Shown here: positions 3,669 to 53,790 of the stretch, piece by piece
How positions within the stretch are numbered: position 1 is the stretch's first letter
How the letters are laid out: each line of letters begins with the position of its first letter
Assembly (NCBI RefSeq): GCF_024139115.2
Contig: NC_085139.1
Coordinates: 251,010,067-251,074,066 of the forward strand
Direction of reading: 5' to 3'
DNA: 64,000 bases
Source: Armigeres subalbatus
Lineage: Eukaryota > Arthropoda > Insecta > Diptera > Culicidae
Program-made: the position numbers and the translations under genes
The notes under the pieces: model-generated
Told to the model about the DNA's origin: nothing
Database searches by the model: none
What the model saw: only the letters and a program-made list of their open reading frames with translations

Positions 3669-5224
3669 GTTCTTCAATAATTGCATCCATTACGGAGGTT
3701 GATCCACCGACCTTGAACCTATGGAGTTCGTAGACTACCTGGAGCCCACGACAACAACAAGAGCTACATGGAATACAAACATATACCAAGAAAGGGTCAC
3801 GCTACTTGTTTATTCTTCGATAACTGCCTCCATTACGGATATTGATCCGAAGATCTTGACTGTATGGAGTTCGTAGACTACCTGGAACTCACAACAACAA
3901 CAAGAAATACATGAAATACAAACATATACCAAGAAGGGGTCACGCAACTTGTTTATTCTTCAATAACTGCCGCCATTACGGAGGTTGATCAACAGACCTT
4001 GAATCTATGGAGTTCGTAGACTACCTGGAGCCCACGTCAACAAGAACTACTTGGAATACAAACATATACCAAGAAGAGGTCACAAAACATGTTTATTCTT
4101 CAATAACTGCCTCCATTACGAAGATTGATCCACAGACCTTGACTCTATGGAGTTCGTAGACTACCTGGAACCAATGACAACAAGAACTACTTAGAATACA
4201 AACAAATACCATGAAGGCGTGACACAACTTGTTTATTCTTCAATAACTGCCTCCGTTACCAATGTCGAACCCCATACCTTGACTCTATGGAGTTCGTAGA
4301 CTACCTGGAGTCCTCGACAACAACAAGAACTACTTGGAATACACACATATACCAAGAAGGGGTCACGCAACTTGTTTATTCTTCGATAACTGCCTCCATT
4401 ATGGAGATAGATCCGAAGATATTGACTGTATGGAGTTCGTAGACTACCTGGCACTCACGACAACAACAAGAACTACATGAAATACAAACATATACCAAGA
4501 AGGGGTCACACAACTTGTTTTTTCTTCAATAACTGCCTCCATTACGGAGGTTGATCCACCGACCTTGAATCTATGGAGTTCGTAGACTACCTGGAGCCAA
4601 CGACAACAACAAGAACTACTTGGAATACAAACATATATCAAGAAGGGGTCACACAACTTTTTTATTCTTCAAACGCTGCCTTCGTTACCGAGGTCGATCC
4701 CCAGACCTTGACTCTATGGAGTTCGTAGACTACCTGGAGTCCTCGACAACAACAAGAACTACTTGGAATATACACATATACCAAGAAGGGGTCACACAGC
4801 TTGTTTATTCTTCATTAACTGCCTCCATTACGGAGGTTGAACCACAGACCTTGAATTTTTGTAGTTTGTAGACTACCTGTAACCAATGACAACAACAAGA
4901 ATTACTTGGAATACAAACAAATACCAAGAAGGGGTCACACAACTTGTTTATTCTTCAATAACTGCCTCCGTTACTGAGGTTGATCCACAGATCTTGACTC
5001 TATGGAGTTCGTAGACTACCTGGAGCCCACGACAACAACAAGAACTACTTTGAATACAAACATATACCAAAAAGGGGTCACGCAACTGGTTTATTCTTCG
5101 TTAACTGCCTCCATTACGGAGATTGATCCGAAGACCTTGACTGTATGGAGTTCGAAGACTACCTGGAATCAATGACAGCAACAAGAACTACTTGGAATGC
5201 AAACATGTTTTAAGAAAAGGTCAT

Positions 5225-9339: not shown

Positions 9340-9990
9340 CAAGTCCATATAAGTCCCTAGAGCCCGTGCGAATGTTTCACCATTGAATTATGTCCAACTC
9401 AGATGTTCTAGGTTCTCCAAAATGTCCGGAAGTAGAGTTCAATTGGTCTAGCAGGTCAACTACGCCTGATATCAAACCGCAGCGACCCGGCATGTCCTGT
9501 CCATGTAAGTCCTAAGAGCCCATGCGAATGCTTCATCATTCAAATAAGTCCAATTCAGATGTTCTAGGTCCTCCAAGTTGTTCTGAAGTTGAGGTCAATT
9601 GGTCTACTAGGTCAACAACACCTGGTAAAAACAAAAAGCAACCCAACTTGCCCATGTAAGTCTATTGAATCCTAGCGAATGTTTCGCTATTTAAATAAGT
9701 CCAAAGTAGATGTTATAGATCCACGTCAACCACACCTGGTACCAATCCGAAAGCAACCCAACATGTCCATACAAGTCTCTGAAGCTCTTAGGAATGATTG
9801 GCAATTCAAATCGGGACCAAGTAGATGTTCTAAGTTCTTCAAGTTGTCCTGAAGTTCAGATCATTTGATCCACCAGGTCAACTAGGCCTGGTGCCAAACT
9901 TATAGGAATCCAGCATGTCTATGTAAGTCCCTAGAGCCTTTGTGAAAGCTTTATTAGTCAAATAAGTCCAAAATACACGTAAGGCAGCGT
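9340..9990 (-). repeat. ~153-bp satellite array, minus orientation
   Basis: Units begin near 9351, 9507, 9658 and 9924 (a 9773 unit is shortened by a deletion), giving a period of 151-156 bp. Blocks AAGTCCCTAGAGCC, CAGATGTTCTAGG, TCAATTGGTCTA and AGGTCAAC recur. The reverse complement of these blocks is the unit of the array at 12960-13770, so the same satellite occurs twice, in opposite orientations. Confidence 0.8.
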
Positions 9991-10739: not shown

Positions 10740-11009
10740 ACTTGGGTGCTCGCACACCATTCGCTCCATTTGAGTCTTACTTGGATGCTCTCCCGGGCGC
10801 TCCGCTACCATGCCTCGAGGTGTCAATAGCGGTAACTGCCTGGGCCTACAGATATTACGCTACGACACTCCTACCTCAGCACGAGCAGATCAATCACACC
10901 ACTGCCGAAGCAGACCACACGCTACCCTGCCGAAGCAGGGACTCTCCCCATGCACCACATGTGCACAACTGTAGGTGTGTGGGTACAACCCACTGCTACC
11001 CTGCCGCCG
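10740..11009 (+). repeat. RTE 5' UTR repeat unit, first copy (interrupted)
   Basis: The segment from about 10820 to 11009 is nearly identical to 14715-14905: both carry GGTAACTGCCTGGGCCTACA, CAGCACGAGCAGATCAATC and CTCCCCATGCACCACATGTG. In this copy the unit stops at CGCCG (11005-11009), where the nested element begins. It resumes at the second CGCCG (14559-14563). Confidence 0.85.
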
Positions 11010-11045
11010 CACAGTGATGCCACTCCATTCAAAACACGGAAAAGT

Positions 11046-11560
11046 CTTTTCAATCACTTTTTGTCAACCGATTTTCTCGCAACAGGTTGCATTCGATGCG
11101 GAATATTGTCTCATTGTTTCCTATTGAAAATTGGCCGGATAAGGCTATGGGCTCAAAAGCTGTGGACAAAATACATTTTTTTCATACAAAAAACGGGTAA
11201 AACCTCATCAATCATTTGTTTGGCACTAATGCTCAACCGACTCGCTCGCAACAAACTACATTCAAAGCAGAATCCTGTTCCATTGTTTGTTATTGAAAAT
11301 TTGGTCAGATCGGAAAATGAGATCAGAAGTTATGGCCAAAATACTAATTTCATTATTACAATACAAAATCACTTTTTTTGGCACTTATGTGAATCCGATT
11401 TGCTTGCAACAAGTTGCGTTCGGCGAGAAATTGTATTATGCATATAAACAAATATGAAAAATAAGACCTATCCACATATTTGTGTTATTTTTACCTTTTC
11501 TTACATATTTCTTAATTTTTTTGAACGAACGAGAAAGGCACCATCACCGATTATTTAGGG
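11046..11560 (+). repeat. Dispersed repeat with internal ~175-bp periodicity
   Basis: Three diverged units contain CCGATT-TC-CGCAACA, CATTGTTTNNTATTGAAAATT and ATGGNCNAAANAC. The block AATCCTGTTCCATTGTTTG...AGAAGTTATGGCCAAAA also occurs at 44357-44428. After it comes AAAGGCACCATCACCGATTATTTAGGG, which matches 44490-44515 in style. This defines a family with at least two loci here. No function is inferred. Confidence 0.65.
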
Positions 11561-11846
11561 TTTTTGTGCTTGAGATTGCTACGAAGCTTTTTTTAAGACA
11601 GTGATATATAAAACTTATCATATACATATGACGATTTTATGACCCTGAAATAAGCCTTAAGATCTGAGGGAAGGGTTTTCCGTTAAAAAAGCACGTGGTA
11701 TCCCTCTCTGAGAGAGAAAATTGCCCAATTCAGCCCGCCAGAATGACGTTGTCAGTGTCGCCAAAATTATTTCATCATTATGCAGTTTACAATTGCTTTA
11801 GAATTTGCCGTAAACGGAGAACAATGGGGAAGAAATTTATCACTCA

Positions 11847-11864
11847 TGCATGCATGCATGCAGT
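11847..11864. repeat. (ATGC)n palindromic microsatellite
   Basis: ATGCATGCATGCATGCAG-like run, self-complementary, inside the nested Transib-like element. Short simple repeat only. Confidence 0.7.
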
Positions 11865-11995
11865 GTTTCGGCGAGAGAACAGCAGCAACGCCGACCAATC
11901 ACGCAATGAGCAGATCAAAATAAACAAACTCCAGCTGGTTTTGGAAAATGAAAACATGAGCCATGAAAAGCATTTGTGTAATAACAGTAGTGCTG

Positions 11996-12084
11996 ATATA
12001 AATAAGAAAAATAAGACAAACAAGACAAATGAGACAAATAAGACAAATAAGATAGCCATAATAAATAAGACAAATAAAATTAGT
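11996..12084 (+). repeat. A-rich ~9-bp minisatellite (ACAAATAAG)n
   Basis: Repeats such as GACAAACAAGACAAATGAGACAAATAAG run without C-rich interruption. Read in the plus frame they give a KTNKTNKTNK stretch, which is the tail of a 150-codon open frame (11695-12147). That frame is probably not a gene, since its second half is wholly simple repeat. Confidence 0.75.
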
Positions 12085-12089
12085 TCCTC

Positions 12090-12940
12090 CAGGAATTCCT
12101 CTGGAAGTTCCTCAGCAAATTTCTCCGGAAGTCCCCCCCCCCCCTGAATTCCTTCGGAAGTTTCTACGGGAATTCTTCCAGGAGTTCCTAAGAAAGTTCC
12201 TCCAGGAATTTCTCCGGGAGATCTTCCAGAAATTCCTTCGGAAGTTCTTCCTGAAATTCCTTCGGAAGTTCTTCCAGAAATTCTCCAGGAATTCCTTTGG
12301 AAGTTCCTCCAGGAATTCCTTTGGAAGTTCCTCCAGGAATTCCTTTGGAAGTTCCTCCAGGAATTCCTTTGGAAGTTCCTCCAGGAATTCCTTTGGAAGT
12401 TCCTCCAGGAATTCCTTTGGAAGTTCCTCCAGGAATTCCTTTGGAAGTTCCTCCAGGAATTCCTTCGGAAGTTCCTCCAGGAATTCCTTCGGAAGTTCCT
12501 CCAGGAATTTCTTCGAAAGTTCCTCCAGGAATTCCTTCGGAAGTTCCTCCAGGAATTCCTTCGGAAGTTCCTCCAGGAAATCCTTCGGAATTTCATCCAA
12601 TAATTCCTCCGGAAGTTCCTCCAGGAATTCCTTCGGAAGTTCCTCTAGGAATTCCTCCGGAAGTTCCTCCAGGAATTCCTCCGGAAGTTCCTCCAGGAAT
12701 TCCTCCGGAAGTTCCTCCAGGAATTCCTCTTCCGGAAGTTCCTTCTGAAATTCCTCCGGAAGTTGCTTTTTGGAAAGCTTTGGAAGTTATTTCTGGAATT
12801 CATCTGGAAGTTCCTCTTGGAACTCCTCCGAAAGTTCTTCCTAGAACTCCTCCTTTTGGAGTTCCTGCGGAAGTTGCTTCGGAAAATCTGAAGTTCTTCC
12901 AGGAATCCTTCTGGAAGTTCCTCTAGGAATTCCTGGTAGA
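12090..12940 (+). repeat. 24-bp minisatellite array (GGAATTCCTTTGGAAGTTCCTCCA)n, best-preserved copy
   Basis: About 30 units of GGAATTCC-TYN-GGAAGTTCC-TCCA run head to tail; units 12290-12460 are nearly identical. The period is a multiple of 3 with no stop in several frames, so long open frames appear on both strands: 209 codons plus (an EVPPGIPL period) and 250 and 162 codons minus (NSWRNFRR and EFLEELPK periods). The three different 'proteins' from the same DNA argue against selection for any of them. Related, more decayed arrays lie at 33870-34560, 52060-52700, 54560-55020, 59480-60060 and 61600-62000. Confidence 0.9.
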
Positions 12941-12959
12941 CCAATTGATACGAACTCCT

Positions 12960-13770
12960 ACACAGTTTGAAAATTTTTGAACTTCTGGTTTAGATGAGGT
13001 GCGAATCATATACGCGAGCTCGACGGACGTGTATGGACATGACTAGTCAATGTCAGATTTTGATCTGTTAAACCAATTGTTCCAAACTTCACAATAGTTT
13101 GGACAACCTAGAACATCTGGTTTGGGTATAAGTGAAACGAAATTTGTAAGCGTGGTGTCTACGGACATGTATTAACATGAATGTATGATATCATGTTTGT
13201 ATCGAGCGCAGTTGACCTTGTAGACCGATTGATTCCAGAACATTTTGGGTAGCTCATAACATCTGGTTTGGATATAACAGAGTTGCAAATCACACATATA
13301 GGCTCTACGAACTTGTATGAACATGACTGGTTGATGTCAAAGTTATATTGAGCGCAGTTGACTTGATAGACTCCAGAGCAGTATGGAGTACTTCGAACAT
13401 CTGATATTGGTATAACTGAGTTCCAAATCGTATGCATGGGCTCTACTGACTTGTATGGACATCTTATTGCTGTCAGATTTGTACCGAGCGCAGTTGACCT
13501 GGTAGACCAATTGATCCAAACTCCAGAACAGTTTGGAGAACCTGAAACATCTGGTATGGGTATAACTGTGCTGTAAATCATATGCGTGGGCTCTAAGGAC
13601 TTGTGTGGACATGATTAGTTGATTTCAGATAGCTATCAAGCTCAGTTGACTTGGTAGACCAATTGATCCAAACTCCTAAACAGTTTGGAGATCCTAGAAC
13701 ATCTGATTTGGGCAAAACTGAGTAGAATATCATTCCCCTGGCCTCTATTGACCTATATGGACATGACGGG
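12960..13770 (+). repeat. ~153-bp satellite array, plus orientation
   Basis: Units carry GACCAATTGATCCAAACTCC (for example about 13503 and 13656), ACATCTGGTATGGGTATAAC and GGGCTCTANNGACTTGT. This is the reverse complement of the array at 9340-9990. It lies inside the Transib-like element, while the other array lies outside, so they are independent copies rather than arms of one element. The minus-strand frames up to 140 codons are repetition artefacts. Confidence 0.8.
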
Positions 13771-13774
13771 TTTC

Positions 13775-14545
13775 CATTGGCGCGGGTTTCCGTAGTTTTC
13801 ATCGTCAACATTTGCATATCATCTTTCATTACTATAGAGGTCATTTTGGAGTCGCTAGGGATGTACAGAAGAAACATTTTGTTGACACATAGTATAGTCA
13901 ATGCTAGAATAGTGTTATAAAACATTTTTTGAACCTGTAAGTTCCGACTGAAGAATGTCATGTAAATCGAAATTTACTATGTTTTGAATAAAAAAACATC
14001 CTTATTCACGCCCCTCTAGGGACAAATTGAGCATCCCTAGAAACATATCTCACCAGTATGAAAAAATTAGATGAGATAGGTAAGACATCCGTAAAAGAAT
14101 TGTGAAAATCGGTCGAAAGACGCTTGAGATACAGCTGTTCGAAAATTTAGTTTCCACGATTTTCTGATCACTGTATTCGGCGTGTTAATGCTTATGTTTA
14201 CTTCAAGAATGCTTTGAAGAAAAATGCTATTTGCGCAGATTTGCGCAAAACAATCATCATATCTCCGAAAAGCTGGATAAATAAGCTTTGAAATAAGCCC
14301 AATTCGGCATGCGTGCGATTGCGTGCTCATAGTTAAAAATCAGGTTGAACAACATCATGTCTTCGCCATACATGTTACAAGCAATTTTAAAAAACATCTT
14401 TGATTTACCATTGGATCGATGGATCGTGCAATTTTCATCCAATCTTCGTGAAATTTTGAGGAAAGACATTTCAAACATTTTGAAAAATTATAAAAATACT
14501 TTCGAAGCTGTACGATCAACTCAATTTTCTTCATTTTTTCCGCCT
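13775..14545. other. Interior right flank of the Transib-like element, unassigned
   Basis: Moderately AT-rich, with short overlapping frames (up to 126 codons across the element boundary) and no similarity I recognise. I looked for a RAG1-like catalytic core here and did not see one. Confidence 0.3.
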
Positions 14546-14558
14546 TGGCATCACTGTG

Positions 14559-15150
14559 CGCCGAAGCAGCTTCTCCAAAGACCATTCGCTCCATGTGACC
14601 CTTTTTCGGGTGCTCACTCTAACACTCCACTGCCATGCCTCGAGGTGTCGAGAAGGTACCTCGACTCCTACCTCAGCATGTGCAGTCCATACTCAGACTT
14701 CTGCTGCGCTTCGAGGTGTCGATAGCGGTAACTGCCTGGGCCTACAGATATTACGCTACGACACTCCTGCCTCAGCACGAGCAGATCAATCACACCACTG
14801 CCGAAGCAGACCACACGCTACCCTGCCGAAGCAGGGACTCTCCCCATGCACCACATGTGCACAACTGTAGGTGTGTGGGTACAACCCACTGCTACCCTGC
14901 CGCCGAAGCAGCTTCTCCAAAGACCATTCGCTCCATGTGACCCTTATTCAGGTGCTCACTGTAACACTCCACTGCCATGCCTCGAGGTGTCGATAGCGGT
15001 ATGTAGGGACGAATCAACGATACTACGCTACGACACTCCTACCTCAGCATGTGCAGTCATACTCAGACTTCTGCTGCGCTTCGAGGTGACAATAGCGGCG
15101 GCGACACGCTATGACACTCCTCCAGTCGGCCCTCTATAAAAAGCTACATG
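14559..15150 (+). promoter_or_regulatory. RTE 5' UTR tandem units and TATA-containing leader
   Basis: The block GAAGCAGCTTCTCCAAAGACC starts at about 14562 and again at about 14904, a 342-bp spacing, so the leader is built of tandem units. A third, partial unit follows to about 15120. The leader ends with CCCTCTATAAAAAGCTACATG (TATAAAA at 15135-15141), which is also kept in the minus-strand copy (about 26208-26222, reverse complement). Tandem leader units and an internal promoter are common in LINEs. Promoter activity here is inference. Confidence 0.5.
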
Positions 15151-15366
15151 TATCAGCAAGCAGCCTCCGCCAAAGCTACCGTGTGCCGCTTAAAGCGCAC
15201 AAGCCCAATCCCTGGTGTTAGGTGCGACGCTGAACAGCCCTGACACGACGGCCCTCCGACGAGACAGGAGGCTTGCGCAGGCCCAATAAGCCGCCTTTAA
15301 AAACAACCATTACGAACGACATAGAAGATAAAACGAGTCGACACAATCAGCAACGACGAATAAAGG

Positions 15367-16330
15367 AAGCTCGGAACATGGAACTGCAAGTCACTGGGCT
15401 TCGTAGGTTGCGACAGGATAATCTACGATGAATTACATCCCCGCAACTTCAACGTCGTAGCGTTGCAGGAAATCTGCTAGATAGGACAGAAAGTGTGGAA
15501 AAGAGGGCATCGAGCGGCTACCTTCTAGCAAAGCTGTGGCACCACCAACGAGATGGGAACCGGCTTCATAGTGCTGGAAAAGATGCGCCAACGCGTAATT
15601 TTGTGGCAGCCAATCAACGCAAGGATGTGCAAGCTGAGGATAAAAGACCGTTTCTTCAACTATAGCATCATTAACGTGCACTGCCCACACGAAGGGAGAC
15701 CCGACGACGAGAAAGAAGCGTTCTACGCACAGCTTGAGCAGACATACGATGGATGCCCACTGCGAGTCGTCAAAATCGTCATCGGTGACATGAACGCACA
15801 GATAGGAAGGGAGGAAATGTATAGACCGGTCATCGGACCGGATAGTCTGCACACCGTATCGAATGACAATGGCCAACGATGCATTAACTTCGCAGCCTCA
15901 AGCGGAATGGTAGTCCGAAGCACCTTTTTTCCTCGCAAAAATATCCACAAGGCCACATGGAGATCACCTAACCAAGAAACGGAAAACCAAATCGACCACG
16001 TTCTAATCGACGGTAAATTCTTCTCCGACATACGAACGTCCGCACTTACCGCAGTGCGAATATTGAATCCGACCACTACCTCGTTGCAGTATGTCTGCGC
16101 TCAAAACTCTCGACGGTGTACAAAACGCGTAGAAGTCGGACGCCGCGGCTTAATATTGGGCGGCTACAAGGCGGTAGACTAGCAGCAGCTGGAAGTGCCA
16201 CTCCCAACGGAAGAGCAGCTCGCAGCATCTCTTGAAGATGGCTGGAGAGATATTCGATCCGCCATTGGAAGCACCGCAACCGCTACACTAGGCACGGTGC
16301 CCCGGATCGGAGAAACAACTGGTATGACGG
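15367..16330 (+). pseudogene. RTE apurinic/apyrimidinic endonuclease domain, broken
   Basis: The frame starts recognisably at 'KLGTWNCKS' (15367) and keeps the endonuclease/exonuclease/phosphatase signatures: Asn in TWNCK, Glu in 'ALQEIC', 'IGDMNAQIG' near 15785, 'HKATWRSPN' near 15950, 'IDHVLIDG' near 15990 and 'SDHYLV' near 16065. These nick target DNA for reverse transcription. Defects against the minus-strand copy are a TAG at 15478-15480 replacing Trp, a small deletion and frameshift near 16030 that puts SDHYLV out of frame, and a ~14-bp deletion near 16180. No functional start codon was sought, as the copy is dead. Confidence 0.85.
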
Positions 16331-16339
16331 CGAATGTGA

Positions 16340-18142
16340 GCAGTTAGTGGAAGAGAAGAATGCAGCATGGGCGAGATTGCTGCAATACCGCACGAGGGCG
16401 AACGAGGCACGATATAAACAGGCGCGGAACAGACAAAACTCGATTTTCCGGATGAAGAAGCGCCAGCAAGAAGAACGAGACCGTGAAGAGACGGAGGAAC
16501 TGTACCACGCTAATAACGCACGAAAGTTCTATGAGAAGTTGAACCGTTCACGTAAGGGCCACGTGCCACAGCCCGATATGTGTAAGGACATAAACGGGAG
16601 CCTTCTTACGAACGAGCGTGAGGTGATCCAAAGGTGGCGGCAGCACTACGAAGAACACCTGAATGGGGATGTGGCAGACGAAGATGGCGGTATGGTGATG
16701 GACCTGGGGGAACGCGCGCAGAACATAATTCTACCGGCTCCGGACCTCCAGGAAATCCAGGAGGAGATTGGCCGGCTGAAGAACAACAAAGCCCCTGGGG
16801 TTGACCAGCTACCAGGAGAGCTGTTTAAACACGGTGGTGAGGCACTGGCTAGAGCGCTGAACTGGGTCATTACCAAGATTTGGGAGGAGGAAGTTTTGCG
16901 TCCCATCTACAAAAAGGGCGATGAGCTGGATTGTAGCAACTACCGCGCAATCACATAGCTGAACGCCGCCTACAAGGTACTCTTCCAAATTTTATGCCGT
17001 CGAATAGCACCAACTGCAAGGGAGTTCGTGTAGCAGTACCAGGCAGGTTTTATGGGCGAACGCTCTACCACGGACCAGATGTTCGCCATTCGCTAAGTAC
17101 TGCAGAAATGCCGCGAATACAACGTGCCCACACATCATCTATCCATCGACTTCAAAGCCGCATATGATACAATCGATCGGGACCAGCTATGGCAGCTAAT
17201 GCACGAACACGGATTTCCGGATAAACTGACACGGTTGATCAAAGCGACGACGGATCGGGTGATGTGCGTAGTTCGAGTTTCAGGGGCGTTCTCGAGTCCC
17301 TTCGAAACCCGCAGAGGGTTACGGCAAGGTGATGGTCTTTCGTATCTGCTATTCAACATCGCTTTTAAGGGGTAATACGAAGAGCAGGGATTAACACGAG
17401 TGGTACAATTTTCAATAAGTCCGTCCAGCTATTTGGTTTCGCCGACGACATAGATATTATGGCACGTAACTTTGAGAAGATGGAGGAAGCCTACATCAGA
17501 CTGAAGAGGGAAGCTAAGCGGATCGGACTAGTCATCAACACGTCGAAGACGAAGTACATGATAGGAAGAGGTTCAAGAGAAGACAATGTGAGCCACTCAC
17601 CGCGAGTTGGCATCGGTGGTGACAAAATCGAGGTGGTAGAAAAATTTGTGTACTTGGGCTCACTGGTGACTGTCGAAAATGATACCAGCAGAGAAATTCG
17701 GAGACGCATAGTGGCTGGAAATCGTACGTACTTTGGACTCCGCAAGACGCTCCGATCGAATAGAGTTCATCGCCGTGCCAAACTGACAATCTACAAAACG
17801 CTCATTAGACCGGTAGTCCTCTACGGGCACGAAACCTGGACGATGCTCGTGGAGGACCAACGCGCAGCTGTTGGAGAACCATCCATCGTTCACACTGCGA
17901 AAATTGGACGACTGCGGTGGGCCGGGCAGGTAGCCAGCATGTCGGACAGTAACCCGGTGAAAATGGTTCTCGGCAACGATCCGACGGGCACAAGAAGGCG
18001 AGGTGCGCAGCGGGCAAGGTGGATCGATCATGTGGAGGACGATTTGCGGACCCTCCGCAGACTGCGTGGTTGGCGAAGTGCAGCCATGGACCGAGCCGAA
18101 TGGAGAAGACTCTTAGCACAGGCTACTCCGGTCTTAGTCTGA
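16340..18142 (+). pseudogene. RTE reverse transcriptase and C-terminal region, broken
   Basis: Frames at 16347-16958, 17124-17375 and 17459-18142 together give an RTE-type RT. Signatures are 'NNKAPGVDQLPGEL' near 16785, 'LDCSNYRAIT', 'FKAAYDTIDR' near 17150, 'RRGLRQGDGLS' near 17310 and the catalytic FADD box at 17438-17449. The C-terminal part has 'ETWTMLVEDQR' and 'RLRWAGQVA'. Against the minus-strand copy it has in-frame stops near 16956, 17030 and 17095, a frame change around 17370, and loss of about 95 bp at ~17867 that removes the segment ending in LHQL. GTG-start frames at 16347 are only open-frame boundaries. This copy cannot make a full protein. Confidence 0.85.
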
Positions 18143-21859: not shown

Positions 21860-23058
21860 TTCGAATTGGACATGAACTAAACTTTGGTTGAATTTGCATA
21901 TAATTAGATTTGATTTGGAGTTGGAATAAGTCTAGAGTTGTACTCGGATTGGTTAAGGAGTTGATTTGGATTAGACTTGGATTGGATTAAGACTTGGATA
22001 GGATTTAGATTGAAATTTAATTCAATAAAGATTGCATATAGTTTGGTTTTGAATAAGATATGAATTGGGTTCGGATGGGGTTTGGATTGTATAAGGATTA
22101 GATTTGGGTTGGATTTGGATTTAATTTGAATTGAATTTGAATTAGCTTTGGATTGAATTAGGATTGGAGGTGAATTTGATTTGGAATAGGTTTGGATTTG
22201 ATCTGGATTGGTTATGAATTGGATTTTGATTTGTATTGGATTTTAATTAAATTCGATTAAGATTTGGATTTGGATTGGATATTGATTAGATTTTAATTGG
22301 CTTTCGATTGGATTTGGATTTTTATTGGTTTTGGATTAGATTTCAATTGGATTTGGATTGGATTTGGACTCGAATTGAATTGGATGTGGACTGGATTTGG
22401 ATTGGATTTGAATTGAATTTGAATTGGATTTTTACTCGAATTGGATTGGATTTGGACTGGCTTTAGATTGGGTTTGGATTGCATTTTGAATAGATTGAAA
22501 TGGATTGAATTTGGATTGGATTTGCAAAGGATTCGAATTGGATTGGATTTGGATTGAACTTGGATTGAATTAGGATTTGATTAGGATTTGATTTGGATTG
22601 CATTTGGATTTGATTTGGATTGGATTAGATTTGGATTGGATTTGGATTGGTTTTGGATTTGAAATGTATTTGGATTGCGATTGGATTGGAATCGGATTAG
22701 ATTTGTATTGGATTTGGATTTGGATTTGGACTCGAATCGGATTGGATTTGGACTGTATTTGCATTGGATTTGAATTGGGTTTGGATTGGGACTGGATTTG
22801 GATTGGATTTGGATTGGATTGGATTTAAATTTGATTTGGAATGGATTTGGATTGGATTTTTACTCGAATTGGATTTGGACTGGCTTTGGATTGGATTTCT
22901 AATGGATTTTGATTTGGTTTGGATTCGAATCGGATTGGATTTGTTTGGGATTTGGATTCAAATTGGATTAGATTTGAATTGCTTTTGGATTGGATTGGCA
23001 CTGGATTTGGATTAGATTTGTATTTGGATTAGATTTGTATTTGGATTGGATTTGTATT
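21860..23058 (+). repeat. TTGGAT-type degenerate minisatellite, left part
   Basis: Runs of GGATTTGGATTGGATTT with substitutions; the basic beat is 5-6 bases (GGATT or GGATTT), often grouped as 11-12. The plus strand is almost free of C. The array sharpens toward 22570-23058. It continues beyond the RTE insertion at 26332. Plus-strand frames read as DWIWIGFGLDL and minus-strand frames as NPIQIQSKS; these are repeat translations. Confidence 0.9.
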
Positions 23059-23063
23059 ATTTG

Positions 23064-24995
23064 TTATTTAATCAGACTAAGGTCGAAGTGGCCTGTGCGG
23101 TATATAAAAGTCTTCTCCATTCGGCTCGGTCCATGGCTACAACCACGCAGTCTACGGAGGGTCCGCAAGTCATCTTCCACCTGATCGATCCACCTTGCCC
23201 GCTGCGCACCTCGCCTTCTTGTGCCCGTCGGATCGTTGTCGAGAACCATTTTCACCGGGTTACTGTCCGACATTCTGGCTACGTGCCCGGCCCATCGCAG
23301 TCGTCCGATTTTCGCGGTGTGAACGATGGATGGTTCTCCCAACAGCTGATGCAATTCGTGGTTCATTCGCCTCCTCCACGTACCGTCCGCCATCTGCACC
23401 CCACCATAGATGGTACGCAGCACTTTCCTTTCGAAAACTCCAAGTGCGCGTTGGTCCTCCACGAGCATCGTCCAGGTCTCGTGTCCGTAGAGGACTACCG
23501 GTCTAATTAGCGTTTTGTAGATTGTCAGTTTGGTACGGCGGCGAACTCTATTCGATCGGAGCGTCTTGCGGAGTCCAAAGGACGTACGATTTCCAGCCAC
23601 TATGCGTCTCTGAATTTCTCTGCTAGTATCATTTTCGGCAGTCACCAGTGAGCCCAAGTACACAAATTCTTCTATTACCTCGATTTCGTCACCACCAATG
23701 CAAACTCGCGGTGGGTGGCTCACATTGTCTTTTCTTGAACTTCCACCTATCATGTACTTCGTCTTCGACGTGTTGATGATTAGTCCGATCCGCTTAGCTT
23801 CCCTCTTCAGTCTGATGTAGGCTTCCTCCATCTTCTCAAAGTTACGTGCCATAATATCTATGTCGTCGGCGAAACCAAATAGCTGGACGGACTTATTGAA
23901 AATTGTACCACTCGTGTTAATCCCCTGCTCTTCGTATTACACCTTCCAAAGCGATGTTGAATAGCAAACACGAAAGACCATCACCTTGCCGTAACCCTCT
24001 GCGGGTTTCGAAGGGACTCGAGAATGCCCTGAAACTCGAACTACGCACATCACCCGATCCATCGTCGCTTTGATCAACCGTGTCAGTTTATCCGGAAAAC
24101 CGTGTTCGTGCATTAGCTGCCATAGCTGGTCCCGATCGATTGTATCATATGCGGCTTTGAAGTCGATGAATAGATGATGTGTGGGCACGTTGTATTCGCG
24201 GCATTTCTGCAGTACTTGGCGAATGGCGAACACCTGATCCGTGGTGGAGCGTTCGCCCATAAAACCCGCCTGGTACTGCCCCACGAACTCCCTTGCAGTT
24301 GGTGCTAGTCGACGGCATAAAATTTGGGAGAGTACCTTGTAGGCGGCGTGTGTGATGTGATGTGATTGCGCGGTAGTTGCTACAATCCAGCTTATCGCCC
24401 TTTTGTAGATGGGACACACGACACCTTCCATCCACTCCTGCGGCAAAACTTCCTCCTCCCAAATCTTGGTAATGACCCAGTGCAGCGCTCTAGCCAGTGC
24501 CTCACCACCGTGTTTAAATAGCTCTCCTGGTAGTTGGTCAACCCCAGGGGCTTTGTTGTTCTTCAGCCGGCCAATCTCCTCCTGGATTTCCTGGAGATCC
24601 GGAGCCAGTAGAATTATGTCCTGCGCGCGTTCTCCCAGGTCTATCACCATACCGCCATCTTCGTCTGCCACATCGCCATTCAGGTGCTCTTCGTAGTGCT
24701 GCCGCCACCTTTGGATCACCTCACGCTCGTTCGTAAGAAGGTTCCCGTTTATGTCCTTACACATATCAGGCTGTGGCACGTGGCCCTTACGTGAGCGGTT
24801 TAACTTCTCATAGAACTTTCGTGTGTTATTAGCGCGGTACAGTTGCTCCGTTTCTTCACGGTCTCGATCTTCCTGCTGGCGCTTTTTCCTCCGGAAAGTC
24901 GAGTTTTGTCTGTTCCGCGCCTGTTTATATCGTGCCTCGTTCGCCCTCGTGCGGTGTTGCAGCAATCTCGCCCATGCTGCATTCTTCTCTTCCAC
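23064..24995 (-). pseudogene. RTE reverse transcriptase and C-terminal region, two frames
   Basis: The frame 23937-24995 holds the fingers and palm: 'NNKAPGVDQLPGEL', 'QYQAGFMGERSTTDQV', 'FIDFKAAYDTIDRDQL'. A one-base loss near 24030 then shifts it before the 'GLRQGD' motif. The palm FADD box lies at 23862-23873, and frame 23064-23852 carries the thumb and tail with 'SKTKYMIG', 'VYLGSLVTAEN', 'YGHETWTMLV' and 'RLRWAGHVARM'. One further in-frame defect lies near 24350, where 'ITLLNAAYKV' is distorted to 'ITSHHTRRL' or 'SHHITHAAYKV'. Apart from these the domain is complete. Confidence 0.85.
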
Positions 24996-26080
24996 TAACT
25001 GCTCACATTCGCCGTCATACCAGTCGTTTCTCTGATCCGGGTGCTTCCAATGGCGGATCGAATATCTCTCCAGCCATCTTCAAGAGACGCTGCGCCTAGC
25101 TGCTCTTCCGTTGGAAGTGCCACTTCCAGCTGCTGCGCGTATTCTTGGGCTAGTCTACCGTCTTGTAGTCGCCCAATGTTAAGCCGCGGCGTCCGACTTC
25201 GACGCGTGTTGTACACCGTCGAGAGTTTTGAGCGCAGGCATACTGCAACGAGGTAGTGGTCGGATTCAATATTCGCACTGCGGTAAGTGCGGACATTCGT
25301 GATGTCGGAGAAGAATTTACCGTCGATTAGAACGTGGTCGAATTGGTTTTCCGTTTCTTGGTTAGGTGATCTCCATGTGGCCTTGTGGATATTTTTGCGG
25401 GGAAAGAAGGTGCTTCGGACTACCATTCCGCGGGAGGCTGCGAAGTTTATGCATCGTTGGCCGTTGTCATTCGATATGGTGTGCAGACTATCCGGTCCGA
25501 TGACCGGTCTATACATTGCCTCCCTTCCTACCTGTGCGTTCATGTCACCGATGACGATTTTAACGTCCCGCAGTGGGCATCCATCGTATGTCTGCTCCAG
25601 CTGTGCGTAGAACGCTTCTTTCTCGTCGTCGGGTCTCCCTTCGTGTGGGCATTGCACGTTGATGATGCTATAGTTGAAGAAACGGCCTTTAATCCTCAGC
25701 TTGCACATCCTTGCGTTGATTGGCTGCCACCCAATCACGCGTTGGCGCATCTTACCCAGCACTATGAAGCCGGTTCCCAGCTCGTTGGTGGTGCCACAGC
25801 TTTGGTAGAAGGTAGCCGCTCGATGCCCGCTTTTCCACACTTTCTGTCCTGTCCAGCAAATCTCCTGCAGCGCCACGACGTCGAAGTTGCGGGGATGTAA
25901 TTCATCGTAGATCATCCTGTCGCAACCTGCGAAACCTAGCGACTTGCAATTCCATGTTCCAAGCTTCCAATCGTGATCCTGTATTCGTCGCCTAGGTCTT
26001 TGCCGATTATATCGAGTCGCATTATCTCTTATATTGTTCGTAATGATTGGTTTTCTAGGCGGCTTATTGGGCCTGCGCAA
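24995..26080 (-). pseudogene. RTE endonuclease domain, intact frame (361 codons) ending at a frame switch
   Basis: This uninterrupted frame covers the endonuclease. Catalytic landmarks are N44 in TWNCK, E73 in LQEIC, D179 and N181 in GDMNAQVG, and S273-D274-H275 in the ESDHYLV motif. HKATWRSP sits at 232-239 and the DHVLID motif at 248-253. The N-terminal 35 residues are basic (RQRPRRR). The frame ends in a TAG just where the RT frame opens; in the plus-strand copy the same switch occurs. I call it a pseudogene because the element as a whole has a broken RT, though the endonuclease frame itself looks complete. ATG at 26080 is the first in frame; the true start is not certain. Confidence 0.85.
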
Positions 26081-26331
26081 ACCTCCTGTCTCGTCGGAGG
26101 GCCGTCGTGTCAGGGCTGTTTAGCGTCCCACCTAACACCAGGACTTGGGCTTGTGCGCTTTGAGCGGCACACGGTCGCTTTGGTGGGGCCTACTTGCGGA
26201 TACATGCAGCTTTTTATAGAGGTTTAACAGGGCCCACTGTCAAACCCCACCACATCCTAGGCAAGCCCCACAACTCGCAGATGGCCTGGGGAGGGATCGT
26301 CAAGCCCTTGGACATAGTCCCTGCTGCCCGA

Positions 26332-29300
26332 ATTGGATTTGTATTGGATTTGAATTTGGATTCGAATTGGATTAGATTTGAATTGGTTTTGGATTGGATT
26401 TGGACTCGAATTGGATTTGATTTGGACTGGATTTTGAGTAGATTCGGATTGAACTTGAGTTGGATTTGTATTAGATATGGTTTCGAATTGGTTTGGATTT
26501 GTATTGGATTAGGTTTGGATTTGGATTGTGTTTGGGTTGGATTTGGACTCGAATTGGATTGGATTTGGATTTGCATTGAATTTGGATTGGATTGGATTTA
26601 GATTTGATTTGAAATGGATTTGGATTGGTTTTTTACTTGAATTTGATTGAATTTGGACTGGTTTTGGATTGGATTTCTAATGGATTTTGATTTGGTTTGG
26701 ATTTGAATTGGATTTGGATTTGATTTAAGTTGGATTTGGATTTGGATTTGATTTGGTTTTGGATTGGATTTGGATTGGATTTGAATTTGATTTTGATTGG
26801 ATTTGGAATGGATTTCAATTGGATTTGGATTGAATTTCGATTGGATTGGATTTGGATTGGATTTGGATTGGATTTGAATTGGATTTGGATTGGTTTGGAA
26901 TGGATTTGGATTGGATTGGATTTTGATTGGATGGGATTTAGATTTGATTTGAAATGGTTTGGATTGGTTTGGACTGGCTTTGGATTGGTTCTAATGGTTT
27001 GATTTGTTTGGGATTTGGATTGGTTTGGATTTGATTTGGTTTGGATTTGGTTGGATTTGATTTGGTTTGGATTGGTTTGGATTGGATTGGTTTGGATTGG
27101 TTTGAATTTTGATTTTGAATAGATTTGGTTTGGTTTGAATTGGTTTGGATTGGATTTCGATTGGATTGGATTTGGATTGAATTTCGATTGGATTGGATTT
27201 GGATTGGATTTGGATTGGATTTGGATTGGATTTGGATTGGATTTGGATTGGATTTTAATTGGATTTGGATTGGATTTGGATTGGATTTGGAATGGATTTG
27301 GATTGGATTGGATTTGGATTGGATTTAGATTTGGATTTGATTTGGATTGGATTTGAATTGGATTTGGATTGGATTTGGATTTGATTTAGATTGGATTTGG
27401 ATTTGGATTGGATTTGGATTGGATTTGAATTGGAATTGGATTGGATTTGGATTGGATTTGGAATGGGTTTGGATTGGATTGGATTGTATTTGGATTGGAT
27501 TTGGATTAGATTGGATTTGGATTGGATTTGGATTGGATTTGAATTGGATTTGGATTGGATTTGGATTGGATTTGGATTGGATTTAAATTGGATTTGGATT
27601 GGATTTGGATTGGACTTGGATTTGGATTGGATTTGGATTGGACTTGGATTTGGATTGGATTTTGATTGGATTTGGATTGAATTTGGATTGGATTTGGATT
27701 GGATTGGATTTGGATTTGGATTGGATTTGAATTGGATTTGGATTGGATTTGGATTTGATTTGGTTTGGATTGGATTTGGATTGGTTTAAATTGGTTTGGA
27801 TTGGTTTGGATTGGACTTGGTTTGGATTGGTTTGGATTGGACTTGGTTTGGATTGGTTTGCATTGGATTTTGATTGGATTGGATTTAGATTTGATTTGAA
27901 ATGGATTTGGATTGGTTTTTTACTCGAATTGGCTTGGATTTGGACTGGCTTTGGATTGTATTTGGATGGATTTGGATTGGATTTGGATTGGACTTGGATT
28001 TGGATTGGATTTGGATTGAATTTGCATTTGAGTTGGATGGGATTTTGATTGGACTTGGATTTGGATTGGATTTGGATTTGGATTTGGATTAGATTGGATT
28101 TGGATTGGATTTGGATTGGATTTGGATTGGATTTTGATTGGATTTGGATTGGATTTGGATTGGTTTGGATTGGTTTGGATTGGTTTGGATTAGATTTGGA
28201 TTGGTTTGGATTGGTTTGGATTGGTTTGGATTGGTTTGGATTGGTTTGGATTGGTTTGGACTTGGTTTGAATTAGATTTGGATTAGATTTGGTTTGGATA
28301 GAATTGGGATTGGTTTTGGTCTCGAATTGGATTGGATTTGAATTGGACTTGGATTAGGATTGGATTGAATTTGGATTAGATTTGGATTTGGGTTGGAATT
28401 AGATTGGATTTGGATTGGTTTGGGAATGGATTTGGATTTGAGTTGGATTGGAATCGGCTTGAATTTGTATTGGATTTGGATTTGGATTGGGTTTGGATAA
28501 GATTTGGATTGGATTTGAATTGGATTTGGATTGGATTTGGATTCGATTTGGATTTGGATTGAATTTGGATTCGAATTGGATTTGGTTTGGATTTGGATTG
28601 GATTTGGATTGGAATTGGATTGGATTTGGATTTGAATTGGATTTGGATTTGGATTGGATTTGGATTTGGATTTAGAATGGATTTGGATTTGGATTCAAAT
28701 TGGATTGGATTTGAATTGGTTTTGGATTGGATTTGGACTCGAATTGAATTAGATTTGGATTGGATTTGGATTTGGATTGGAATTGGATTGAATTTGTATT
28801 TGGATTGGATTTGGATTGGATTTGGATTGGATTTGGATTGGATTTGGATTTGATTTGGATTGGATTTGGATTGGATTTGGATTGGATTTGGATTGGATTT
28901 GGATTGGATTTGGATTGGATTTGGATTTGATTTGGATTTGATTTGGATTTGATTTGGATTTGATTTGGATTGGATTTGGATTGGATTTGAATTGGATTTG
29001 GATTTGGATTGGATTTGGATTGGATTTGGATTGGATTTGGAATGGATTTGGATTTGAGTTGGATTGGAATCGGATTGAATTTGTATTGGATTTGGATTGG
29101 GTTTGGATAAGATTAGGATTGGATTAGGTTCAGATTTAGATTGGTTTTGAATTGGATTTCGATTCGATTTGGATTTGGATTGAATTTGGATTCGAATTGG
29201 ATTTGGATTTGGATAGGATTTGGATTGGAATTGGATTGAATTTGAATTCGATTTGGAAGGGATTTGGATTTGAGTTGGATTGGATTCGATTTGGATTGGA

Positions 29301-31250
29301 TTTGAATTGAATTTGGATTGGATTTGGATTGGATTTGGATTGGATTTGGATTGGATTTGGATTGGATTTGGATTGGATTTGGTTTTGGATTGAATTTAGA
29401 TTCGAATTGGATTTGGATAGGATTTGAATTGGATTTTGATTGGATTTGGATTTGAATTGGATTTTGATTTGGATTGGATTTGGATTGACTTTGGATTGGA
29501 TTTGGATTTGGGTTGGATTCGAATCGGATTGAATTTGTATGGGATTTGGATTTGGATTCAAATTGGATTGGATTTGAATTGGTTTTGGATTGGATTTGGA
29601 CTCGAATTGGATTGGATTTGGACTGGATTTGCATTGTTTTTGGATTTTTGGATTTGGATTTGGGTTGGATTCGAATCGGATTGAATTTGTATTGGATTTG
29701 GATTTGGATTCTAATTGGATAAGATTTGAATTGGTTTTGGATTGGATTTAGACTCGAATTGGGTTGGATTTGAACTGGGTTTGGACTGGATTTGGATGGG
29801 ATTTGTACTAAATTTGGATTAGGTTTGAATTTGGATTTGGATTCGAATTGGATTTGATTTGGATTGGGCTTGTATTGGATTTGGATTTGATTTGGAATGA
29901 ATTTGGATTGAGTTTGGACTCGAATTGAATTGGATTTGGATTGGATTTTTACTCCAATTGGATTGGATTTGGACTGGCTTTTGATTGGATTTGAATGGAT
30001 TGGATTTGGATTCAAATTGGATTGGATTTGAATTGGTTTTGGATTGGATTTGGACTCGAATTGAATTGGATTTGGACTGGATTTGGATTGGATTCGGATT
30101 GAACTGGAGTTGGATTTGTATTGAATTTGGTTCCAAATTGGTTTAAATCTGTATTGGATTAGGTTTGGATTTGGATAAGATTTTTATTGGATTCCAATTG
30201 GATTAGATTTGAATTGGTTTTTGATTGGATTTGGATTGGATTTCAATTGGGTTTGGTTTCGTATTGGATTGAATTTGAATTCGAATTGAGTCAGAATTGG
30301 ACTAGTTTTTGATTGGGTTTGGATTCGAATTGAAAAAAACTTAGAATAGATTTGGATTGGATTGAATTAGTTTTGGATTGAATTTGGATTAGATTTGGAA
30401 TTGGATTTGGATTGGATTTGGATTGGATTTGAATTGAATTTGGATTGGATTTGGATTGGAATTGGTTTCGAATTTGATTGGATTTGGATTTGATTTGGAT
30501 ATGGATACGAATTGGATTAGATTTGAATTGGTTTTGGATTGGATTTGGACTCGAATTGGATTGGATTTAGGTTGAATTTGCATTGGTTTTGGATTTAAAT
30601 AGAATTGAATTTGGATATGATTTGGAATGGATTTAGTTTGGATTTGGATTGGATTTGGATTTGAATTAGAATGAATTTGGATTTGATTTTGATTGGATTT
30701 GGATTAGTATTGGTTTAGCCTTAGGTTGGATTTGGATTCGGATTGGATTTGGATTTAATTTCCATTTATTTTAAATTGAATTTAGAGAGGATTTGGGTTG
30801 GATTTGGATTGGATTTGGATTGAATTTGGATTTGAATTGAGTTTGGATTTTATTTTGATTGGATTTGGATTGGGTTCGGATGGGATTTGAGTTGGATTTT
30901 GTTTCGAATGGAATTGGATTTTGATTCGAATTGGATTAGACTTGAATTGGTTTTAGATCGGATTTGGATTGGATTTGGTTTCGAATTTAATTTGGATTCG
31001 ATGAGGTTCGGATTTGGATTGAGTTTAGATTAGATTTGGATTGGATTTGGATATAATTATTATTAAATTTGATTTGGATTACTTAAGATTGGCTTTAGAT
31101 TGGATTTGGATCGGATCTGGATTAGATTTGAGTTGGATTTGGATTCGCATTGAATTGTATTTGGATTCAAATTGGATTAGATTTTGATTGGCTTTGGATT
31201 GGAATTGGATTCGAATTAGATTGGATTTGGATTGAATTTCGATTTGAACT
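26332..31250 (+). repeat. TTGGAT-type degenerate minisatellite, right part (about 4.9 kb)
   Basis: Continuation of the array at 21860-23058. It is most regular at 27180-28270 and 28800-29050, where GGATTTGGATT repeats almost perfectly for hundreds of bases, and more diverged after 30100. A GGTTTGGATT variant dominates 27000-27140 and 28160-28260. Higher-order blocks recur, such as GGATTCGAATTGGATTTGG and TTGGACTCGAATTGG. The longest repeat-derived frame is 300 codons on the minus strand (29113-30015). A smaller, much decayed relative lies at 55870-56230. Confidence 0.9.
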
Positions 31251-33869: not shown

Positions 33870-34560
33870 TCAATCCTCCTCCGGAAGTTCCTCCAGGAAC
33901 TCCTCCGGAAGTTCCTCCAAGAATTCCTCCGGAAGTTCCTTCAGGAACTCCTCCGGAAGTTCCTCCAGGAACTCCTCCGGAAGTTCCTCCAGGAACTCCT
34001 CCGGAAGATTCTCCAGGAATTCCTCCGGAAGTTCCTCCAGGAATTCCTCCGGAAGTTCCTCAAGGAATTATTCGGATAACTTCTCCTGGAATTCGTTCGG
34101 AAGTTCCTCCAGGAATTCCTCCGCAAGTTCCTGCAGGAATACATCCAGAAGTTCCTCCAGGAAATCCTCCGGAAGTTTCTCCAAGTTTTCCTTCGGAAGT
34201 TTCTCCAGGAATTCCTCCGGAAGTTCCTCCAGGAATTCCCCCGGAAGATCCTACATGAATTCCTCCGGAAGTTACTCCATGAATTCCATCGAAAGTTCCT
34301 AAAGGATTTCCTCCTAAGGTCCTCCAGATTTTTTTTGGAAGTTCCTTCAGGAACTCCTCTGGAAGTTTCTCCAGGAATTAGTTTGGAATTTCCTCCTGGA
34401 ATTTTTTGGGATGCTTCTCCAGGAATACCTTGGAAAGGTTCTCCAAGAATTCCTTCCGGAATTTCTACAAAAGACTTTTTAAAATTGTTCAGGAACTTTC
34501 TTCAAGAATTTCTTCGGAAGTTTCTCTATGAATTCATTCGGAAGTCCCTCAGCTAGTTCA
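33870..34560 (+). repeat. 24-bp minisatellite array, second copy
   Basis: Same unit as 12090-12940 (GGAACTCC/GGAATTCC-TCC-GGAAGTTCC-TCCA). It is regular from 33870 to 34260, then decays through 34560. A 135-codon plus frame with a PEVPPGTP period results from the repeat. A short TTTGATTTGGATTTCAA piece at 33856 recalls the TTGGAT family at its border. Confidence 0.85.
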
Positions 34561-44224: not shown

Positions 44225-44520
44225 TTAAAATTTTTGAGGTCTGACTGAGGTGATGTCTGTATGTGTGTATGTATATGCGTGAATGTGTGTACGTATGTGT
44301 GGGTGTATATGTGTATATGTGTATAAATTTACATGCAACAGGTGCCATTCGACGGTGAATCCTGTTCCATTGTTTGCTATTGAAAATTGGCCAGATCGGA
44401 ATATGAGATCAGAAGTTATGGCCAAAACACTTTTTCTATGCGCAAAACACGCTAAAAACACTCTTTCATATTTTTAATATTTTGTTACACCGCTGGGTGG
44501 ATTAATCAGGGTTTTTATAT
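44225..44520 (+). repeat. Dispersed repeat (same family as 11046-11560) with a TG-rich microsatellite
   Basis: 44357-44428 matches 11271-11341 (AATCCTGTTCCATTGTTTG, AGATCGGAATATGAGATC, AGAAGTTATGGCCAAAA). The stretch 44254-44325 is a GTATGTGTGTATGTATATG-type microsatellite. The GCTGGGTGGATTAATCAGGG phrase at about 44492 also has a relative at 11540-11565. Confidence 0.7.
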
Positions 44521-52959: not shown

Positions 52960-53790
52960 TCGTTTGGCCGAAACCTATTCGTCCGAAAGCCATTTGGCCG
53001 AAAGTCATTTAGCCGAATAGTTATTTTGGCCGAAACGAACACTTGTCCAAATTGGACATTTGGCTGAAAAGGCCATTTGTCCGAATAAGACATTTGGCCA
53101 AATAGAACATTTGACCAAAAAAGACATTTTCCCGAAAAGCACATCTGGCTGAATAGGTCATTTGGTTGAATAGGACATTTGGCCGAATAGAACATATGGC
53201 CAAATAGAACACTTGACCGAATATAGCATTTCGCCAAATGGGACATTTGACCGCAAAGGTGAATTGACCATATAAGGCATTTGGCTGGATAAGTCATTTG
53301 GCCGAATAAGACATTTGGCAGAATAGGTCATTTAGCCGAATAGATCATTTGGCTGGGTCATAGGTCATTCGGCCGAATAGGACATTTGGCCGAAAAGGTC
53401 ATTAGGGCGGATAGGTCATTTGGCCGAATAGGTCATATTGCTGGATATGACAATTGGCCGAAAAGGTCATTTGGCCGAATAGGACATTTCGACTAATAGA
53501 ACATATGACCAAATAGAACACTTGGCCTGATATGACATTTGGCCGAATATGACATTTGGCCGAATATGACATTTGGACGAAAAGGTGAATTGACCGAAAA
53601 GTACATTTGGCCGAATAGGACATTTGGCCGAATAGGAAACTCACTTTCTAACTGACCTATTCGGTCAAATGACATGCTCGGTAAAATTACATTTTAGGCC
53701 AAATGTTTTTTTTCGGCCAAATGAATTATTCGGCCAATTGGCCTATCAGGCTATATAACCCTTTCGGCCAAACAGCCCTTTTCCTTCAAG
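52960..53790 (-). repeat. Degenerate 17-bp array, best copy
   Basis: Units of TTGGCCGAATATGACAT repeat every 17 bp, most regular at 53530-53580 and 53280-53420. Three units make 51 bp, so every reading frame has a 17-residue period on the minus strand (FGQMSYSAKCHIRPNV). The orientation flips near 53650, where CGGTCAAATGACAT and CGGCCAAATGA words begin. Confidence 0.85.

What the first reader, a model, noticed from the sequence alone, without database searches (positions are those of the whole stretch)
11010..14558. Element with V(D)J-type heptamer ends inserted in an RTE leader
Ends are the 7-mer CACAGTG, identical to the recombination-signal heptamer, with a perfect 13-bp inverted repeat and 5-bp CGCCG duplications. 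An uninterrupted copy of the target is in the next leader unit (14895-14915), so the insertion is well supported. The right end has a 12-bp gap and then AAAAAATGA (14539-14531 on the minus strand). The left end has a 23-bp gap and then AAAAGTCTT (11040-11048). That hints at a 12/23-type asymmetry like RAG substrates; the nonamer part is only A-rich and could be chance.
Basis: partly seen in the sequence, partly recalled or inferred. Interest (0 to 1): 0.75.

Follow-up and report, generated by a model that had tools for sequence, protein, structure and literature searches.

The report
Non-autonomous Transib transposon in a mosquito
This is most likely a 3.5-kb mosquito jumping gene, with no detectable enzyme of its own, of the Transib kind whose ends resemble the cutting signals of antibody genes; that resemblance is already known, and the hinted 12/23 spacing is not better than chance.

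Summary
The insertion is real. Positions 11010-14558 are bounded by a perfect 13-bp inverted repeat, CACAGTGATGCCA, and by 5-bp CGCCG duplications. An uninterrupted copy of the target lies in the next tandem unit: 14708-14905 is 98.5% identical to 10812-11009. Heptamer-like CAC ends, a 5-bp duplication and a CGNCG target are published marks of the Transib superfamily, from which the RAG1 core and V(D)J signals are held to derive. No transposase was detected inside, so I read it as a non-autonomous Transib-type copy in a mosquito, probably a culicine.

The 12/23 hint is not supported. The proposed pairing matches the consensus nonamer at 8 of 18 positions, which 17.7% of random local pairs reach. 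The left end matches better at a 12-bp spacer. Asymmetric 12/23 Transibs are in any case already described from Anopheles.

Part of the body is repeats with relatives elsewhere in the window: a 24-bp minisatellite, a tandem repeat of about 150 bp and a subterminal repeat. Copies in the rest of the genome could not be checked: the genome search did not complete in nine tries. New member of a known kind; low interest.

The parts
11005..11009 (.). Left 5-bp target site duplication CGCCG
   Evidence: fits CGNCG, given as the Transib preference in PMC4735498 (passage)
11010..14558 (.). Non-autonomous Transib-type DNA transposon, 3549 bp
   Evidence: Ends, duplication and empty site; no transposase detected
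11010..11022 (+). Left terminal inverted repeat CACAGTGATGCCA (heptamer 11010-11016)
11064..11412 (+). Two degenerate direct subterminal repeats (11064-11254 and 11233-11412, 68% alike), related to 44327-44435 elsewhere in the window
12082..12853 (.). 24-bp minisatellite, about 32 copies, inside the element; related array at 33877-34465
12932..13772 (.). Degenerate tandem repeat (periods 138 and 152 bp reported) inside the element; related repeats at 9340-9938 on the other strand
14546..14558 (-). Right terminal inverted repeat (heptamer 14552-14558)
14559..14563 (.). Right 5-bp target site duplication CGCCG
14708..15098 (+). Next tandem unit with the uninterrupted target (paralogous empty site near 14895-14915)

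Best explanation
A non-autonomous Transib-superfamily DNA transposon inserted by cut-and-paste into a tandem repeat unit upstream of a non-LTR retrotransposon in a mosquito, probably a culicine. Inferred mechanism: a Transib transposase supplied from elsewhere bound the heptamer-like ends, cut the element out (hairpins on the flanks, blunt cuts on the element ends, as published for the Helicoverpa zea Transib) and joined it across a 5-bp stagger at a CGNCG site, duplicating CGCCG. Shown here: ends, duplication, empty site, no detectable transposase. Inferred: the enzyme, the donor and the chemistry.
For: Perfect 13-bp inverted repeat starting CACAGTG; 5-bp CGCCG duplication; empty paralogous unit. 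Published marks of Transib: 5-bp duplications and heptamer-like ends (PMC8355894, PMC7204232, PMC4411706; passages), CGNCG target (PMC4735498, passage); a relative, TransibSU-1_PM, is said to have 13-bp identical inverted repeats analogous to known Transibs (PMC4411706). Hairpin mechanism of Hztransib: PMC6941560 (passages). Host: the best named matches to the neighbouring retrotransposon are mosquito proteins. Mosquitoes hold Transib in part: one passage notes its absence in neotropical and New Guinean anophelines (PMC7728395).
Against: One copy only. No second copy with these ends lies in the window, and the genome search did not complete in nine identical tries. No transposase piece ties the body to Transib, so the assignment rests on ends, duplication length and target. 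These family searches had no positive control with a known Transib transposase; a degraded one could be missed.
Confidence: 0.9

Rival explanations
1. The ends form a true 12/23-type asymmetric signal pair, so that the element moves under a 12/23-like rule, as V(D)J segments do.
For: A residues at the named spacings are more than usual (11 of 18; 3.0% of random local pairs). Asymmetric 12/23 Transibs are described for Transib5 of Drosophila and Transib2, N1, N2 and N3 of Anopheles gambiae (PMC8355894, legend and passages).
Against: Nonamer score 8 of 18 (17.7% of random pairs); the left end scores 6 of 9 at spacer 12 against 3 of 9 at 23. The symmetric 12/12 sum is 11, reached by 0.4% of random pairs at that one spacing and by 5.1% when any symmetric spacer of 10-25 is allowed; symmetric 20-22, also reported for Transib (PMC8355894), gives 10 (3.5%). 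None of these was corrected for the number of tests.
Confidence: 0.04
2. A DNA transposon of another superfamily (hAT, CACTA, Chapaev or similar) whose ends look like the heptamer by chance.
For: CAGTG or CAC begin the ends of several superfamilies (recalled, from no call). The body carries no transposase that would decide.
Against: No duplication of 6 to 12 bp at any end shift of up to 4 bases; 4-bp matches only with a shifted end. The 5-bp duplication fits CGNCG.
Confidence: 0.05
3. No transposon: a chance inverted repeat around unrelated repeats, or an assembly artefact.
For: Part of the body is tandem repeats with relatives elsewhere in the window, and tandem arrays are prone to misassembly (general knowledge). 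The 13-mer alone is not rarer than chance.
Against: Duplication, inverted repeat and empty site agree to the base; none of 10 shuffles gave a 13-bp inverted repeat with identical 5-bp flanks.
Confidence: 0.01

Closest known systems
Transib superfamily of DNA transposons, non-autonomous members such as TransibN1-N3 of Anopheles gambiae (that N marks non-autonomous is recalled)
   Same: Heptamer-like CAC ends, 5-bp duplication, CGNCG-type target, cut-and-paste insertion
   Different: This copy is 3.5 kb and holds minisatellite and tandem-repeat DNA; its sequence could not be compared with any named Transib, since no Repbase or Dfam is on hand
Hztransib of Helicoverpa zea (active Transib)
   Same: Symmetric ends with likeness to the heptamer but little or none to the nonamer (PMC8289069 passage); chemistry inferred to be the same
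   Different: Hztransib encodes its transposase; none was detected here
V(D)J recombination signals and RAG-like transposons (ProtoRAG, TransibSU)
   Same: Heptamer CACAGTG identical to the RSS consensus (PMC8289069 passage); 5-bp duplications
   Different: No RAG1 or RAG2 gene detected, no nonamer above chance, no 12/23 asymmetry shown

Membership tests
Transib superfamily | Terminal inverted repeats starting with an RSS-heptamer-like CAC motif | tested here: met
   CACAGTGATGCCA at both ends, 13 of 13
Transib superfamily | 5-bp target site duplication | tested here: met
   CGCCG, the longest match over lengths 4-12 and end shifts of up to 4 bases; empty site
Transib superfamily | CGNCG-like target | tested here: met
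   CGCCG fits CGNCG, stated in PMC4735498 (passage); one insertion only
Transib superfamily | Transposase related to the RAG1 core (autonomous members only) | tested here: inconclusive
   No transposase family in 10 open frames of the element (Pfam), in 7 (NCBIfam) or in six read-through frames (Pfam); no positive control. Absence is expected for a non-autonomous copy.
Transib superfamily | Further copies with the same ends and duplication length | not tested
   The genome search unanswered nine times; no second copy in the window
12/23-asymmetric RSS-like ends | Nonamer at spacer 12 on one end and 23 on the other | tested here: not met
   Scores 8 and 9 of 18 in the two orientations; 17.7% and 7.6% of random local pairs do as well
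hAT superfamily | 8-bp duplication next to the ends (length recalled) | tested here: not met
   No match of 6 to 12 bp at any end shift of up to 4 bases
CACTA and Chapaev superfamilies | 2- to 4-bp duplication next to the ends (lengths recalled) | tested here: inconclusive
   4 bp needs a shifted end. Lengths 2 and 3 were not scanned; read, the bases next to the ends are CCG and CGC (no 3-bp match), while the 2-bp CG match is part of the 5-bp one. The empty site shows CGCCG once, so 5 bp were duplicated.

The most novel reading that the evidence does not exclude
A Transib family in a culicine mosquito with functional 12/23-like asymmetric ends that carries minisatellite and tandem-repeat DNA as cargo and so spreads satellite seeds by cut-and-paste.
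Probability: 0.03. Interest if true: 0.5.

Novelty: new member of a known kind. Interest (0 to 1): 0.12.

Why it matters
It adds one clean insertion of a Transib-type element with a consensus RSS heptamer in a mosquito. It would bear on the origin of the 12/23 rule only if an alignment of many copies showed fixed, unequal spacing at the two ends.

Tried and rejected
12/23 asymmetry: scored against the consensus nonamer and against random local pairs; not above chance. The A-count test (3.0%), the 12/12 test (0.4% at that one spacing, 5.1% over spacers 10-25) and the 20-22 test (3.5%) were made after the sequence had been seen and are not corrected. Beyond the 13-bp repeat the two ends are slightly more alike than random pairs: 11 of 23 (2.5%), 14 of 32 (2.9%), 17 of 47 (9.6%).

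A second copy in the window: none. Inverted repeats inside the element: 10 pairs, among them the terminal one; the others were not found to mark a nested element.

Copies elsewhere: an exact 14-mer of the left end in viral contigs gave 104 stretches, 80 of them listed. BLAST of the element against all 104 found only one 22-bp match at E 0.82, so they are taken as chance matches. A protein search with the open frame that runs across the left junction gave no match at E <= 0.01 among 72 candidates.

Transposase: weak matches only, none to a transposase; one frame (14260-14487, minus) had no match in the PDB at E <= 5. The DUF445 match (E 5e-5, below its curated cut-off) covers residues 440-571 of that frame, which lie in the 24-bp minisatellite; it is taken as a repeat artefact.

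Papers: Kapitonov and Jurka 2005 is not held; what I say of it comes from passages of other papers. All papers cited were seen as passages only; passages of PMC3442997 and PMC9033116 added little. In the listings of six literature searches I saw no paper on this very element, but Repbase could not be searched and I do not claim that it is unnamed.

Full report
What is there. The element at 11010-14558 (3549 bp) has a perfect 13-bp inverted repeat, CACAGTGATGCCA, at both ends and CGCCG on both sides. Over duplication lengths of 4 to 12 and end shifts of up to 4 bases, the only 5-bp match is at the unshifted ends; three 4-bp matches need a shifted end. The joined flanks align with the next tandem unit, 14708-15098, straight across the junction (89.5% over 392 columns), and 10812-11009 is 98.5% identical to 14708-14905. 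This is the empty site. Among 13 left-type and 13 right-type heptamers in the window it is the only pair under 8 kb with identical 5-bp flanks. With the large satellite region cut out, 3 of 516 pairs of 13-bp inverted repeats have identical 5-bp flanks and 1 of the 3 starts with CAC; none of the pairs in 10 Markov shuffles has such flanks.

What it is. Heptamer-like CAC ends and 5-bp duplications are published marks of Transib elements and their RAG-like relatives (PMC8355894, PMC7204232, PMC4411706; passages), and CGNCG is given as the Transib target in PMC4735498 (passage). CGCCG fits. The 8-bp duplication of hAT (recalled) does not fit; shorter lengths (CACTA, Chapaev; recalled) are unlikely because the empty site shows five duplicated bases. 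No transposase was found in 10 open frames against Pfam, in 7 against NCBIfam or in six read-through frames against Pfam, but no Transib positive control was at hand. I file it as a non-autonomous Transib-type copy on the strength of ends, duplication length and target.

Host and surroundings. The window holds two copies of a non-LTR retrotransposon, 91.2% identical over 15131-17866 against 26222-23445. The second copy has RVT_1 and Exo_endo_phos above their cut-offs; of three frames of the first copy, one has a sub-threshold RVT_1 match and two have none. Its reverse transcriptase frame also matches LINE-1 ORF2 chains in the PDB (E about 1e-6). Anopheles matches are lower (59% or less in the rows that I compared). 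So the host is a mosquito, probably a culicine. The tandem units that hold the insertion lie upstream of the first copy, but the similarity of the second copy does not reach them, so calling them its leader is an inference.

The body. Left subterminal repeats (11064-11412, 68% alike) have a relative at 44327-44435 (76% and 90%). A 24-bp minisatellite (12082-12853) is shared with 33877-34465, and a tandem repeat with periods of 138 and 152 bp (12932-13772) with 9340-9938 on the other strand. The stretches 11441-12080 and 13776-14558 have no match in the rest of the window at E 1e-4. Whether the repeats were captured, expanded in place or inserted later is not settled.

The 12/23 hint. In 20,000 random local pairs 17.7% reach this in their better orientation; the opposite pairing scores 9 (7.6%). 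The left end scores best at spacer 12 (6 of 9). The symmetric 12/12 sum is 11 (0.4% of 50,000 pairs at that spacing; 5.1% over spacers 10-25), and symmetric 20-22 gives 10 (3.5%). A-richness as such is above background (3.0%). The best reading is symmetric ends with A-rich subterminal DNA, in line with the statement that most Transib families have symmetric ends and that those of Hztransib have little or no likeness to the nonamer (PMC8289069 passage). Even a real asymmetry would have precedent: 12/23 Transibs of Drosophila and Anopheles are in print (PMC8355894).

How it works. Inferred from published Transib biochemistry (PMC6941560 passages): a transposase made elsewhere binds the ends, cuts with hairpins on the flanks and blunt ends on the element, and inserts with a 5-bp stagger. 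Shown here are only the end product and its empty site.

Limits. One copy, no genome-wide search (nine unanswered tries), no Repbase. Verdict: real, well observed, ordinary; a new member of a known kind.

Noticed in passing
22064-23058 and 26333-31244: Arrays of 11-bp units (ATTGGATTTGG- and TTGGATTGGAT-like) lie on both sides of the second retrotransposon copy (23056-26222, minus strand), which seems to sit inside one satellite array.
   Followed up: no
12082-12853 and 33877-34465: Related arrays of a 24-bp minisatellite occur inside the element and about 20 kb away.
   Followed up: partly
44327-44435: A relative of the element's left subterminal repeat stands directly behind a TG-rich microsatellite (44253-44324), with no exact CACAGTG heptamer between 33.8 and 47.5 kb.
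   Followed up: partly
3670-5206: Tandem array of a 143-bp unit, about 10.8 copies, 84% matches.
   Followed up: no
52991-53637: Tandem array of a 17-bp unit (CATTTGGCCGAATAGGA), about 38 copies.
   Followed up: no
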